From Burkholderia seminalis DSM 23518 (lineage in GTDB: Bacteria > Pseudomonadota > Gammaproteobacteria > Burkholderiales > Burkholderiaceae): a DNA stretch of 64,000 nucleotides. The translations under genes were made by a program, and so were the position numbers. Below are positions 41,824-49,268 of the stretch, piece after piece (position 1 is the first letter of the stretch; the number at the start of each line of letters is the position of its first letter). Under the pieces are notes generated by a model. That model ran no database searches. It worked only from the letters and a program-made list of their open reading frames with translations, and was not told the origin of the DNA. The stretch covers positions 186,001-250,000 of the forward strand of contig NZ_CADFDK010000002.1 of the NCBI RefSeq assembly GCF_902832885.1, given 5' to 3'.

Positions 41824-44800
41824 ATGCCATACAGCACGCTTCAGTCCATTCGCCGCTACCAGAGCATTTCGATGTTCGGGGGCGGCATCGTCGTCACGAT
41901 CCTGATCCTGATCGCCTGCGGGCTCGGGATCACGTCGATCGTCTACGGCCATCTGGACGGCGAGCGGCGCAATTTCCTGAACGGTGTCGAGGAAGCCGCG
42001 GACGAGGTGCAGGTGGCCGAGACGTCGTTCCGCAACGGCGTCACGAATACGCAACTCATCTGGCGGGAGATCGGCGCGGCGCCGGCCGACGTCGTGAACG
42101 CGTTCTTCGCCGACGGCCAGCAGCTGGCGATCAAGCCGTATCCGTCGCTCGTGGTCGGCGTGCCGGGGCAAACCGCGCGGCGCGACGAGGTCGCTCGTTA
42201 TCTCGCGCTGTCGTTCATGCTGTCGCGCATCTGCGCGGCGAGTTCGCTCAATCGCGGGCGTACGCTCGAGGGGTACCACTACAGTACGCGCACGGGCGTC
42301 TTCGGCCTGGTGCCACACCTGGCGCGCGACAATCCGGCACTGGCGTCGGCCGACGCGCGTGCGCAAGTATTCGATGCGCTGCGCATCGATTTCGACGGCT
42401 CGCCGCCGGCGCCGAACGACGGTCGGCCGAACGTCCGCTGGCTGCCGCCCTACGTCAACCCCGTCACCGGGCAGATGCGCATCCGCGTCGCCGCCGAGGC
42501 GCGCGCCGCCGGCCAGCCGTTCGCGGTGCTGGTCACCGAATACGCACCCGACTACCTGCTGTCGTGGCTGCCCGGACGGGGCTTGGCCGGCACGTTCTTC
42601 ATCACGTCGGCGGACAACCGGCTGATCGCGATCGATCCGGACGTCGCACGCACGAACGCCCTGAGCGAGCGCTTGCTGAGCCTCGATGTCGCGCATCGTG
42701 GAAGGGTGTCCGCCGAGCCGCTCTTTCGCGACGGCGCGATCGTGTTCAGCAGCAAGCTCGCGGCAACCGGCTGGACGATCGCCTATGTGCTGTCGTGGGC
42801 CGACGTGCTGGCCGGCATCGGCGTGCAGGCCGGCGGGCTCGCGGCGTCGACCCTCGTTGCGATCATCGTGATGTGGCTGCTGCTCGTGCGTTTCCACCGG
42901 CGCGTGCTTGTGCCGGTGTATGCACGCTCGGCCCGCGTGTTCGACAGCGAGGCGCTGTGCCGCAGCGTGATCGCGATGGCGCCGGTCGGCATCGGCCTCG
43001 TGTCGTTGTCCGACCGGCGCGTGATGCTCGCGAGCGACGCGCTCAAGCAGATGCTGCTGCCGCATGAAGGCGATTACCATGCGCTGTCCGCGCTGGCACT
43101 CGAGAAGTACGACGCGTTCGTCGCGAACGGCGGGGCCGGCCGGACGATGACGACCGAGCTCGTGCTCGACGCACGCGGCGATACGCCGCTGCACCTGGAG
43201 ATCATCGCGCACGGCGCGCGTTATCAAGGCGAGGACGTGCTGATCGCGACGTTCGCCGACATGAGCGCGCAGTGCCGCCTCGTTCATCAGCTCGAGGAAG
43301 CGGTGCGCGCGGCCGATTCGGCGAATGCGGCCAAGTCGTCGTTTCTCGCCGCGACGAGTCATGAGATCCGCACGCCGCTGAACGTGATCCTCGGCAACCT
43401 CGAGCTGCTCGAGCGCACGGCGCTCGATGCCTCGCAGCAGGGCCGCGTGCGGACGCTGCGCGCGTCGGCCGAAGGGCTGCTCGCGATCGTCAGCGACGTG
43501 CTCGATTTCTCGAAGATCGAAGCCGGCGCGATGTCGGTCGAGTCGATCGAGTTCGACGTGATCGCGGTGATCGAGCGCGAGCTCGCGGCATTCGCGTCGG
43601 TCGCGAAGGCAAAAGGGTTGCCGCTGTTCGCCGATATCGATGCGAGCGGCGCGCAGCGCATGCGCGGCGATCCGACGCGGCTCGCGCAGGTGGTCGGCAA
43701 CCTGCTGAGCAACGCGATCAAGTTCACGAGCGCCGGGCGCATCGTCGCGCGCGTGGCGGTCGGGCGAAATGCGCGCGGTGCGCCCGAGATCGCCATCGGC
43801 ATCGAGGATACCGGCATCGGGATCGACCCTGCGCAACAGGGCAAGCTGTTCAAGGCGTTCTCGCAGGTCGATGCGTCGATCACGCGGCGCTATGGCGGCA
43901 CGGGGCTCGGGCTCGCGCTGTGCGACCGGCTGGTCGCGGCGATGGGCGGGACGATTGCGGTCGACAGCGCGCCGGGCGTCGGCAGCCTGTTCACCGTGCG
44001 CTTGCCGCTGCATACGGGCATTGCGCCGAAATCCCCGGCCGGCGCGGGTGCCGGCCGGACGCTGATCGTCGTGTCGCCGGAGGACGCGTGGCGTGCGTTT
44101 GCCTTTCCGCATCTGCGTGCATGGGGGTTCGACGTCGCGATGCATCCGAGTCCGATCGGGATTGCCGCCGGGTGCCTCGCGCGTGCACACGCGATCGTGC
44201 TCTTCGGCGATTCCGACCAATGGCGGCGCGAGGAGCTCGACAGCCTCGGCGGCGGTACGCCGGTCGTGCTGGCGACGCCGGACGGCCCGCTGCAGCCGGA
44301 CGTCGCGGGCCGCACGATCCGCGTGTCGAGTTATTCGCTGAACGGGCTGCGCATGGCGATCGCGCAGGCGCGAGTCGCTACCGCCGAGTCGCCGCGCGGG
44401 CCGGGGTGCGCGCCCGATGTCGGGCAGTCGGCGTCGCCGGCTTCCAGCACGCGTGTGCCGCGTGTGCTGGTCGCCGACGATGCGGCGGTCAACGGGTCGA
44501 TTTTCCGCGAGCAGCTGGATGTGCTCGGTTGCACGGTCCGGTGTGTGTCGTCCGGCGGCGCGGCGCTCGACACGCTCGAGAGCGGCATGTGGGACGTGCT
44601 GCTGCTCGGTGCCGACTTGCCCGACATGTCGGTCCGGGAACTGGTCGAAGCCGTTCATGCGCGCGCGTTGCCGTGCGACATGATCGTCGTGGCATCGTAT
44701 CTGGCGCCCGACAATGCCCGGCGCTACGCGGCATCGAACGTCGCGTATGTGTTAACCAAGCCGGTGACGCTGGCCGACCTGCGCCGCGGCCTCGCCCGCG

Positions 44801-44901
44801 TTGCGCGGCGGCGCGGGATCGCACTCCCCGCGGGCACGGCGGACAAGCGGCCTGCTTCGGGCGTCATGGCTGCTGCGACGATGCACTGGCCCGGACGGTA
44901 A
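41824..44901 (+). CDS. Hybrid histidine kinase with a non-phosphorylatable receiver
   Basis: 1025 aa, inner membrane. Transmembrane helices at about 18-40 and 336-355 enclose a 295-residue periplasmic sensor. A PAS-like stretch (380-485) leads to the H-box TSHEIRTPLN with His513, then the ATPase (NLLSNAIKFT, EDTGIGIDP, GGTGLGLAL). A degenerate receiver-like region (745-850) precedes a C-terminal receiver (878-995) with acidic pocket VADDAAVN and Lys979, but position 929, normally Asp, is Gly (WDVLLLGADLPDM). Pairs with the RcsB-like regulator and second kinase downstream. Confidence 0.93.
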   Translation: MPYSTLQSIRRYQSISMFGGGIVVTILILIACGLGITSIVYGHLDGERRNFLNGVEEAADEVQVAETSFRNGVTNTQLIWREIGAAPADVVNAFFADGQQLAIKPYPSLVVGVPGQTARRDEVARYLALSFMLSRICAASSLNRGRTLEGYHYSTRTGVFGLVPHLARDNPALASADARAQVFDALRIDFDGSPPAPNDGRPNVRWLPPYVNPVTGQMRIRVAAEARAAGQPFAVLVTEYAPDYLLSWLPGRGLAGTFFITSADNRLIAIDPDVARTNALSERLLSLDVAHRGRVSAEPLFRDGAIVFSSKLAATGWTIAYVLSWADVLAGIGVQAGGLAASTLVAIIVMWLLLVRFHRRVLVPVYARSARVFDSEALCRSVIAMAPVGIGLVSLSDRRVMLASDALKQMLLPHEGDYHALSALALEKYDAFVANGGAGRTMTTELVLDARGDTPLHLEIIAHGARYQGEDVLIATFADMSAQCRLVHQLEEAVRAADSANAAKSSFLAATSHEIRTPLNVILGNLELLERTALDASQQGRVRTLRASAEGLLAIVSDVLDFSKIEAGAMSVESIEFDVIAVIERELAAFASVAKAKGLPLFADIDASGAQRMRGDPTRLAQVVGNLLSNAIKFTSAGRIVARVAVGRNARGAPEIAIGIEDTGIGIDPAQQGKLFKAFSQVDASITRRYGGTGLGLALCDRLVAAMGGTIAVDSAPGVGSLFTVRLPLHTGIAPKSPAGAGAGRTLIVVSPEDAWRAFAFPHLRAWGFDVAMHPSPIGIAAGCLARAHAIVLFGDSDQWRREELDSLGGGTPVVLATPDGPLQPDVAGRTIRVSSYSLNGLRMAIAQARVATAESPRGPGCAPDVGQSASPASSTRVPRVLVADDAAVNGSIFREQLDVLGCTVRCVSSGGAALDTLESGMWDVLLLGADLPDMSVRELVEAVHARALPCDMIVVASYLAPDNARRYAASNVAYVLTKPVTLADLRRGLARVARRRGIALPAGTADKRPASGVMAAATMHWPGR

Positions 44902-49200: not shown

Positions 49201-49268
49201 TCCGGCCGGAGTGGCCGGAGATGCGCGTGGAGGTGGAGGCTGCGCTGTCGAGATTGTCCGGCGTCTGA
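46266..49268 (+). CDS. Hybrid histidine kinase with receiver and HPt (BvgS/EvgS type)
   Basis: 1000 aa. Transmembrane helices at about 33-53 and 354-375 enclose a periplasmic sensor. H-box MSHEIRTPLN with His529; ATPase NLVSNAIKFT, RDTGIGIPA, GGTGLGLPL. The receiver (776-890) is complete: VAEDHPAS, Asp825 in VVLTDLGMPELDG, Lys875 in VVLKPLS. A C-terminal HPt (910-1000) has the phosphoacceptor His946 in GELHSMRGGFALAG. It therefore holds all relay modules that the first kinase lacks, and its HPt is the likely donor to Asp58 of the RcsB-like protein. Confidence 0.94.
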   Translation: MPTKLKALIAHAAAAGRKPFEPGRVRRQQQWLLYGSGVAITVFVLACAALVVRLDLQESVAHERSEFLVRKADLLAEMEVVKALQNRYTDILELMARHGPTTPPDALEPFADGRGRLAVLGHAGRVAVAAFAADPSSRPGGTYAPFLAAFLETVEKTGVMPPRQPGDPGMGGYLIDLAGDFVIVTGYPLVKSTLALPAGFDVKALIRQLQPPADFVSAAAAPGNRPIFLDRRQDPLLGRSVLRFAQAVRDTQGKPIAWFVIVTRPEIDDILRSASAGQNYALVDSNANVLTGQQAAPVLTARALDYARAAGGERAAAHRVGTNIVIGDRMPGFDEVLTATHSWRSVFDDVAVRLGIATGLALLAIGTVWFAIVMFDRRALRPANRRAIRLIESEALNRTLIRTAPAGIMLLSLANGDTMARNEAARIYGDAGTAPLLGKRIWHAYRDNIAGGRKPRVVTHELAVDRAGGGAAYLAAHIVRTRYRGVDVLLCTLTDITARKQAEDKLHEAREAADDANKAKSTFLATMSHEIRTPLNAIVGNLELMARAALPAAEQRRLRTVMSSSDALLRVINDVLDLSKAESNQMVLEAVPFDLRAVLRDVAAIFRPLADAKRLVLECRVAPGLADGYVGDPTRLRQIVSNLVSNAIKFTEHGSVTIDALPAAASGRPRGVEIVVRDTGIGIPAEALPTLFDVYVQTDPSIYRRFGGTGLGLPLCGRLARLMGGALTVDSRPGAGTRFTASLPLAEAPSGWRAAFDDEPAAAALPTHADESVPLRVLVAEDHPASRVLLRDQLDALRYDATIVTNGVEAMRAFFARSYDVVLTDLGMPELDGFALANFLREQGATVPVIAMTAHATEEDRRRCAQAGVAEVVLKPLSIDALGAVLQRHGARGATALQAVDRDDRQAPPMTDAIREQLRAATLHSLSTIDAALPRGDHDRVKGELHSMRGGFALAGDADASDTCARGERVLAAGGVDALRPEWPEMRVEVEAALSRLSGV

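What the first reader, a model, noticed from the sequence alone, without database searches (positions are those of the whole stretch)
41824..49268. Split Rcs/Bvg-like phosphorelay: kinase with a dead receiver, RcsB-like regulator, and kinase with receiver plus HPt
Seen: kinase 1 (41824-44901) has an intact H-box and ATPase, but its C-terminal receiver has Gly929 where the phosphoryl Asp should be, and it has no HPt. Kinase 2 (46266-49268) has His529, Asp825 and HPt His946. Between them is a regulator with the RcsB loop MPGGKYGDG and Asp58. Inference: kinase 1 cannot complete a relay alone and must phosphorylate Asp825 of kinase 2 or form heterodimers with it, so two periplasmic signals feed one HPt and one regulator. 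The pattern resembles CblS-CblR-CblT; whether the receiver loss is shared there is the key question.
Basis: partly seen in the sequence, partly recalled or inferred. Interest (0 to 1): 0.82.

Follow-up and report, generated by a model that had tools for sequence, protein, structure and literature searches.

The report
Two-kinase relay, one dead receiver
In many Burkholderia species a conserved pair of sensor proteins appears to work through one shared relay, because one of the two has lost the chemistry of its own receiver domain while keeping the domain itself, which makes it a natural test case for how such sensors talk to each other.

Summary
Kinase 1 (K1) has an intact kinase core and a receiver-fold domain with Gly929 at the phosphorylation site, and no HPt; K2 has His529, Asp825 and HPt His946; the regulator has Asp58. 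It is not an assembly error: of 50 K1 rows readable at 929 none has a complete active site; 44 lost Asp, and the six that keep it lost both acidic partners. The dead domain is under purifying selection (dN/dS 0.154). K1 and K2 occur in the same 48 of 65 genomes. The key question is answered: CblS-like kinases of six cbl-type loci keep Asp. A missed 65-aa gene lies between K1 and the regulator and is in all 48 genomes. A CS1-class pilus usher lies within 25 kb of K1 in 15 of the 20 genomes that have it, but this genome has none. Best reading: His513(K1) to Asp825(K2) to His946(K2) to Asp58, with the dead receiver as gate or docking domain. Every transfer is inferred; K1 as phosphatase or inhibitor of K2 remains possible. 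New variant of a known kind.

The parts
41824..44901 (+). kinase 1 (K1), 1025 aa: N-terminal sensor region, HisKA, HATPase_c, unclassified domain, pseudo-receiver; no HPt
   Evidence: orthologues (47% identity or more) in 48 of 65 genus genomes
43360..43362 (+). His513 of K1 (HEIRTP box)
   Evidence: H in 51 of 51 K1 rows; E514, T517, N630 and two G1-box positions also 51 of 51
44053..44403 (+). unclassified domain between kinase core and receiver of K1 (residues 744-860)
   Evidence: only chance-level Pfam matches in single members (best E 0.014, 22 members); profile finds no convincing PDB relative (best E 0.24); 12 invariant columns in 22 rows
44455..44811 (+). pseudo-receiver of K1 (residues 878-996)
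   Evidence: Pfam Response_reg 38.8 bits; nearest solved relative RcsC receiver 2ayz, E 5.9e-8; alternating strands and helices in a model that is poor overall; dN/dS 0.154
44608..44610 (+). Gly929, in place of the phosphoryl Asp
   Evidence: G 37, D 6, A 5, N 1, E 1, gap 1 of 51 rows; the six D rows lack both acidic residues
   Evidence: matches in 49 of 65 genus genomes, including all 48 with K1 and K2; dN/dS 0.171, residues 2-50 0.093 (15 loci)
45526..46185 (+). response regulator, receiver plus LuxR-type HTH; Asp58
   Evidence: D58, ADD and Lys in 51 of 51 loci; NCBIfam RcsB 153.9 bits, below cut-off 235
46266..49268 (+). kinase 2 (K2), 1000 aa: N-terminal sensor region, HisKA, HATPase_c, receiver, HPt
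48738..48740 (+). Asp825 of K2 receiver
   Evidence: D in 47 of 49 rows; the other two are broken (frameshifted) rows with a gap
49101..49103 (+). His946 of K2 HPt
   Evidence: H in 47 of 49 rows; the other two are broken (frameshifted) rows with a gap

Best explanation
K1 and K2 are two sensors of one phosphorelay. Shown: K1 has a complete, strongly conserved kinase core and a receiver that lacks the residues for the usual phosphorylation chemistry; it has no HPt; K2 and the regulator carry complete phosphorylation sites. Inferred: K1 autophosphorylates on His513, hands the phosphoryl group to Asp825 in K2's receiver (in trans or inside a mixed complex), from there to His946 of K2 and then to Asp58 of the regulator. 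K1's dead receiver is kept as a docking or gating domain on a kinase core; its dead site avoids draining His513 into a receiver that has no HPt behind it. The small protein is probably a fourth component acting near the regulator or the kinases (inferred from gene order only). The ancestral output was probably a CS1-class chaperone-usher pilus (the class of cable pili); no such usher was found in this genome, so its present targets are unknown.
For: No complete acidic pair plus Asp in any of 50 K1 rows, while H513, E514, T517, N630 and G1 are unchanged in 51 of 51. Pseudo-receiver dN/dS 0.154, like the catalytic domain (0.170) and close to K2's live receiver (0.123); K1 DHp 0.054, the lowest of the 14 segments measured. 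Only 7-55 residues follow the receiver in 50 K1 rows, against 105-122 in the seven relatives at 33-41%, which keep receiver Asp and HPt His. K1 and K2 in the same 48 of 65 genomes. The six Pfam Hpt matches in the genome (E 0.1 or better) all lie in frames of 754 aa or more, so no single-domain HPt was seen. K1 and K2 DHp helices are alike after the His. Precedents, read as passages: PvrS needs its His but not Asp862 and acts through RcsC, whose HPt His is needed (PMC3842833); LadS and CblS use the partner's HPt (PMC4866733); the HisKA domain of GacS phosphorylates a receiver of RetS (PMC5992135); pseudo-receivers of ShkA and CikA inhibit autophosphorylation, ShkA's by binding HisKA (PMC12632262).
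Against: No phosphotransfer was tested. K1 keeps the HExxT phosphatase motif, so it could be a net phosphatase. Distance correlation does not single out K1 DHp with K2's receiver: rho 0.65 and the highest partial value (0.40), but K1 DHp against the regulator's receiver is also 0.65, and the regulator's receiver tracks K1's unclassified domain most closely (0.75; 0.80 in one 60-column window). K1, regulator and K2 follow one another in 46 of 51 loci (counted), so co-occurrence is partly linkage. Paralogous kinases in the same genome have similar DHp helices, so their receivers are not excluded as partners. CblS and LadS, the closest relays described, use their own live D1.
Confidence: 0.52

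Rival explanations
1. K1 is mainly a negative partner: it dephosphorylates K2's receiver through its HExxT motif or blocks K2 by forming mixed dimers, as RetS does to GacS, or acts as the phosphatase of the pair, as RcsC does in PA14.
For: T517 of HExxT is in 51 of 51 rows. RetS: transmitter phosphatase on the GacS receiver and inhibition of autophosphorylation (PMC5992135, passages). RcsC T506 needed for repression (PMC3842833, passages). Such a role does not need receiver chemistry in K1.
Against: RetS is reported to have a degenerate ATP-binding domain; K1 keeps the boxes (G1 51 of 51, G2 50 of 51) with DHp dN/dS 0.054, which fits a working kinase. In PA14 it is the HPt-bearing sensor that is the phosphatase, the opposite assignment.
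Confidence: 0.27
2. K1 bypasses K2 and phosphorylates Asp58 of the regulator directly, as an ordinary two-component kinase with a receiver that takes no part in the chemistry.
For: K1 DHp distances track the regulator's receiver as well as K2's receiver (rho 0.65 each).
Against: K1 was never found without K2 (48 of 48 genomes), even where K2 is not adjacent; CblS is reported to need CblT's HPt to reach CblR (PMC4866733, passages).
Confidence: 0.09
3. K1 feeds a different relay: another receiver-HPt kinase in the genome, for example the paralogous kinases 13-36 kb upstream of the window.
For: Those kinases have intact receiver and HPt (L088, L089) and GNLEL-type DHp helices.
Against: K1, regulator and K2 are neighbours in 46 of 51 loci (counted); K1 and K2 presence match exactly.
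Confidence: 0.07
4. K1's receiver is decaying junk in an otherwise ordinary relay, with no role for the domain.
For: The acidic active-site loop is relaxed (conservation 0.64 against 1.00 in K2) and the domain as a whole is looser than K2's receiver (0.74 against 0.90); six rows show a second route to inactivity.
Against: Purifying selection on the domain (dN/dS 0.154); first strand (0.90), KPVT loop (0.95) and the end of alpha1 (E896, Q897, L901, G902 invariant in 48 rows) conserved across the genus.
Confidence: 0.05

Closest known systems
CblS-CblT-CblR of Burkholderia cenocepacia (cable pili)
   Same: Two sensor kinases, one with HPt, feeding one LuxR-type regulator; CS1-class pilus linkage in many genomes
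   Different: CblS-like receivers keep Asp in 6 of 6 loci identified here by layout and place, and CblS is reported to use its own D1 (PMC4866733, passages); the six CblR-like regulators match this regulator at only 29-32%
PvrS-RcsC-RcsB of Pseudomonas aeruginosa PA14
   Same: Hybrid kinase acting through an HPt-bearing second kinase on an RcsB regulator of a chaperone-usher pilus; PvrS works without its receiver Asp (PMC3842833, passages)
   Different: PvrS still has the Asp; here the receiver is inactive in all readable orthologues of the genus
LadS/RetS-GacS network of Pseudomonas aeruginosa
   Same: Kinases acting on another kinase's receiver or HPt (passages)
   Different: LadS uses its own D1; RetS is reported to lack kinase activity; K1 keeps a complete kinase core
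ShkA and CikA pseudo-receiver kinases
   Same: A pseudo-receiver fused to a hybrid kinase, reported to inhibit autophosphorylation (PMC12632262, passages)
   Different: ShkA also has a live receiver; K1's only recognised receiver is dead

Membership tests
CblS-CblT-CblR | S-type kinase: receiver with phosphoryl Asp, no HPt | tested here: not met
   no complete active site in 50 readable K1 rows; CblS-like rows 6 of 6 have Asp, 5 of 6 lack HPt letters
CblS-CblT-CblR | T-type kinase with receiver and HPt | tested here: met
   K2; 47 of 47 unbroken rows
CblS-CblT-CblR | linked to a CS1-class pilus operon | tested here: inconclusive
   15 of 20 usher-bearing genomes have it within 25 kb of K1; no usher match in this genome
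CblS-CblT-CblR | phosphotransfer from S-type D1 to T-type HPt to regulator | not testable with these tools
   needs purified proteins
Rcs (RcsC/RcsD/RcsB) | scores above NCBIfam RcsC and RcsB cut-offs | tested here: not met
   K1 317 and K2 396 of 920; regulator 153.9 of 235
Rcs (RcsC/RcsD/RcsB) | RcsD, RcsF and IgaA partners | not tested
   not searched
BvgS/EvgS | periplasmic solute-binding-type domains (recalled); EvgS model above cut-off | tested here: not met
   no such Pfam domain; EvgS 156.7 and 223.6 of 1995
RetS-type inhibitory kinase | degenerate ATP-binding G-boxes | tested here: not met
   G1 51 of 51, G2 50 of 51 intact
[quoted passage not shown]
   Gly929; definition read as a passage

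The most novel reading that the evidence does not exclude
A genus-wide two-kinase relay in which one kinase depends obligately on the other's receiver and HPt: its own receiver has been fixed in an inert state, by two different routes, and reused as a gate or docking domain, with a newly found 65-aa protein as a dedicated fourth component.
Probability: 0.4. Interest if true: 0.7.

Novelty: new variant of a known kind. Interest (0 to 1): 0.57.

Why it matters
In the cross-talk studies cited here, the route between partner kinases was worked out by mutating phosphorylation sites in the laboratory. Here evolution has fixed an inactive receiver in one partner across most of a genus, so the route of the phosphoryl group is constrained by sequence and can be tested directly. 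It also bears on the open question of what pseudo-receivers do, and adds an uncharacterised small protein to such a system.

Tried and rejected
Assembly error: rejected, 50 readable orthologous rows. CblS sharing the loss: rejected for the six cbl-type loci examined. RetS-type degenerate kinase: rejected, ATP boxes intact. Distance correlation as proof of K1-K2 pairing: not decisive. The unclassified K1 domain as an RcsC ABL or ShkA-type pseudo-receiver: no support on its own, though one phmmer alignment to ShkA runs across it into the receiver. K1 sensor: one weak match to a chemoreceptor sensor (6pxy, E 1.8e-4) and weaker ones, among repetitive designed proteins, so nothing is concluded. K2 HPt alone: no PDB match of note. 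Structure of K1: mean pLDDT 42.6, not used for fold search; K2 (70.3) gave only histidine-kinase, phytochrome or similar entries in the 50 rows listed. RcsB-box pattern, recalled from memory: one match with three mismatches, far from this locus. Promoter scan: none found. Rfam: none. Small protein: no family or PDB match of note; DUF3106 is the commonest weak match (12 of 16 members, best E 0.0039; window copy 14.3 bits, cut-off 24.3). Window neighbours: of ten frames given, one matched Sel1 and one a flavin reductase, eight matched nothing; some of these frames may not be genes.
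Full report
What is there. The window lies in a Burkholderia genome (relatives of K1 at 74-88% in records of B. puraquae, B. latens, B. anthina and unnamed Burkholderia species, 11 of the 13 loci; window = G000:C2:186001-250000). Pfam gives K1 HisKA, HATPase_c and a weak Response_reg (38.8 bits) with no Hpt, and K2 HisKA, HATPase_c, Response_reg (83.5 bits) and Hpt (26.3 bits). 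Gly929 of K1 and Asp825 of K2 fall in one column. Membrane placement of the sensor regions was not tested.

The dead receiver is conserved. K1 orthologues (47% identity or more) were found in 48 of 65 genus genomes; 51 rows were aligned, because G008, G022 and G061 have two. At position 929 the 51 rows have G 37, D 6, A 5, N 1, E 1 and one gap from a frameshifted gene. All six D rows lack both acidic residues of the pocket (GI 4, GV 1, SI 1), so 0 of 50 readable rows have the full acidic pair plus Asp. Kinase residues do not vary: H513, E514, T517, N630 and two G1 positions 51 of 51, G2 50 of 51. Only 7-55 residues follow the receiver in 50 rows, too few for an HPt, while seven relatives at 33-41% have 105-122 and carry both receiver Asp and an HPt His. 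Among 299 genomes of the family, strong matches outside the genus came from four genomes of two other genera; of six K1-like kinase rows there, five have receiver Asp and HPt, and the sixth is a 765-aa frame that stops after the kinase core, with a second frame next to it that matches K1 743-1020, probably one broken gene. So the inert, HPt-less K1 appears to have arisen within Burkholderia from a complete unorthodox kinase (inference).

The domain is kept. Over 91 pairs of 14 close orthologues, NG86 dN/dS is 0.154 for the pseudo-receiver, 0.170 for the catalytic domain and 0.054 for K1 DHp; K2's receiver is 0.123, its sensor 0.586 and its HPt 0.405. Across the genus the pseudo-receiver is looser than K2's receiver (mean conservation 0.74 against 0.90; 48 and 46 rows): lowest in the second strand (0.56 against 0.93) and the acidic active-site loop (0.64 against 1.00), highest in the KPVT loop (0.95) and the first strand (0.90). 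The nearest solved relative is the RcsC receiver (2ayz, E 5.9e-8).

K2 and the regulator are intact. K2: Asp825 and HPt His946 in 47 of 49 rows, the other two being broken rows; the K2 of G058 and the second K2 of G059 were not fetched and so not checked. Regulator: Asp58, ADD and Lys in 51 of 51 loci. K2 orthologues occur in exactly the 48 K1 genomes. K1, regulator and K2 follow one another in 46 of 51 loci; in three (L077, L078, L080) the order is regulator, K2, K1; in two (L050 of G058, L053 of G022) no K2 lies in the stretch fetched (counted), but G058 has one about 13 kb upstream of K1 and G022 has one on another contig beside its second K1.

The key question. Eight genomes have a strong CS1 major-pilin match (E below 1e-27). 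In six of them the fetched stretches hold a CblS-like kinase, and its receiver keeps Asp in 6 of 6; five also hold a CblT-like kinase with Asp and HPt. Five of the six CblS-like rows lack HPt letters; the G060 row has some, and no CblT-like kinase was seen in its stretch, which also holds two further regulators at 39-41%. Of the other two genomes, G057's kinase runs off the stretch and G012's pilin neighbour is a complete unorthodox kinase (L085). The Cbl labels are mine, from layout and place; the gene names and numbers in J2315 were read as passages (PMC2559838). The original CblSTR paper is not held. PMC4866733 (passages) states that CblS uses its own H1 and D1 and CblT's H2. The loss is therefore not shared.

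A fourth gene. Aligning the K1-regulator gap showed a conserved frame: 65 aa, 45014-45211, GTG start after AAGGAAGG. It matches in 49 of 65 genus genomes, namely the 48 with K1 and K2 plus G036, which has a K2-like kinase at 43%. dN/dS is 0.171, and 0.093 over residues 2-50 (15 loci). Twelve columns besides the start are invariant in 16 rows. A relative also lies beside a regulator in L118, from another genus of the family. In an order-level draw it was found in 2 of 300 genomes, this one and G457, where it lies about 200 bases from a regulator at 44%; there a single-sequence tblastn did not recover it, only the profile did. No family describes it.

Likely output. On the K2 side of the locus, 12 K1 loci hold genes of a CS1-class pilus cluster (one, L052, the subunit only); Pfam gives CS1 major subunit PF04449 and the TcfC usher domain PF16967 over cut-off for L055. 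The usher is in 20 of 65 genomes, and in 15 of those 20 it lies within 25 kb of K1; of the rest, two are about 100 kb away, one about 1 Mb, one on another contig, and one is in a genome without K1. In G055 the same cluster stands beside a complete unorthodox relative of K1 (L086). This genome has no usher match, so the present targets here are unknown.

Mosaic history. Domain-wise identities show block exchange: L052's K1 is 92-99% like L045 up to DHp but 53-73% after it, where it is 85-92% like L065 and L072, together with the regulator (97-98%) and K2's DHp-CA and receiver (86-94%) (46 loci). The six D rows fall in three places of the tree made without the receiver, consistent with that exchange, so they are not six independent events. 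Which state of the receiver is ancestral cannot be told. K2 sensors fall to 32-35% between loci whose K2 kinase cores are 72-86% alike.

Mechanism. With no live receiver and no HPt, K1 needs another protein to reach a relay. PvrS in PA14 needs its His but not its receiver Asp and works through RcsC; GacS-P phosphorylates a receiver of RetS; fused pseudo-receivers of ShkA and CikA inhibit autophosphorylation; all read as passages. I therefore prefer His513 to Asp825 to His946 to Asp58, with the pseudo-receiver as gate or docking piece; every transfer step is inferred. The main rival is K1 as phosphatase or inhibitor of K2; conserved HExxT keeps it open, intact ATP boxes argue against a RetS copy. 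Distance correlations were tried: K1 DHp tracks K2's receiver best (rho 0.65, partial 0.40), but tracks the regulator's receiver equally, so I do not count this as proof.

Novelty. Two-kinase relays and pseudo-receivers are both known. In ten paper searches of an open-access library (listings, plus passages of the six papers named) I saw no description of this locus or of a partner kinase with a fixed dead receiver; this is weak evidence, since most subscription papers are missing. I class it as a new variant of a known kind.

Noticed in passing
window 45014-45211 (+): Conserved 65-aa protein gene between K1 and the regulator, matched in every K1/K2 genome and in G036; a profile match also lies next to a regulator in G457 of another family.
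   Followed up: yes
K2 residues 55-350, window 46428-47315: K2 sensor regions fall into very different alleles (32-41% against 54-85% identity in the pairs printed) on similar kinase cores, dN/dS 0.586, as if signal input were swapped between species.
   Followed up: partly
L052, L055, L065, L072, L073, L076: Six pseudo-receivers keep the phosphoryl Asp but lost both acidic partners; their K2 genes group together while their K1 bodies fall in three places of the tree.
   Followed up: partly
L088 and L089 (G000:C2:147000-180400, upstream of the window): Paralogous locus with two unorthodox kinases, both with live receiver and HPt, and two RcsB-like regulators at 47-48%.
   Followed up: no
window 37547-38515 (-) and 35161-36981 (-): BetR-domain protein with a partial, below-cut-off receiver match, near a hybrid kinase.
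   Followed up: no
window 44053-44403 (+): Domain of about 117 residues in K1 with invariant W, H, WG, DGP and S-x-Y positions in 22 rows and no known family.
   Followed up: partly
L052:11153-11845 (+): A lone CS1-subunit-like frame right after K2, below the Pfam cut-off, without the other pilus genes in that stretch; possibly a remnant.
   Followed up: no
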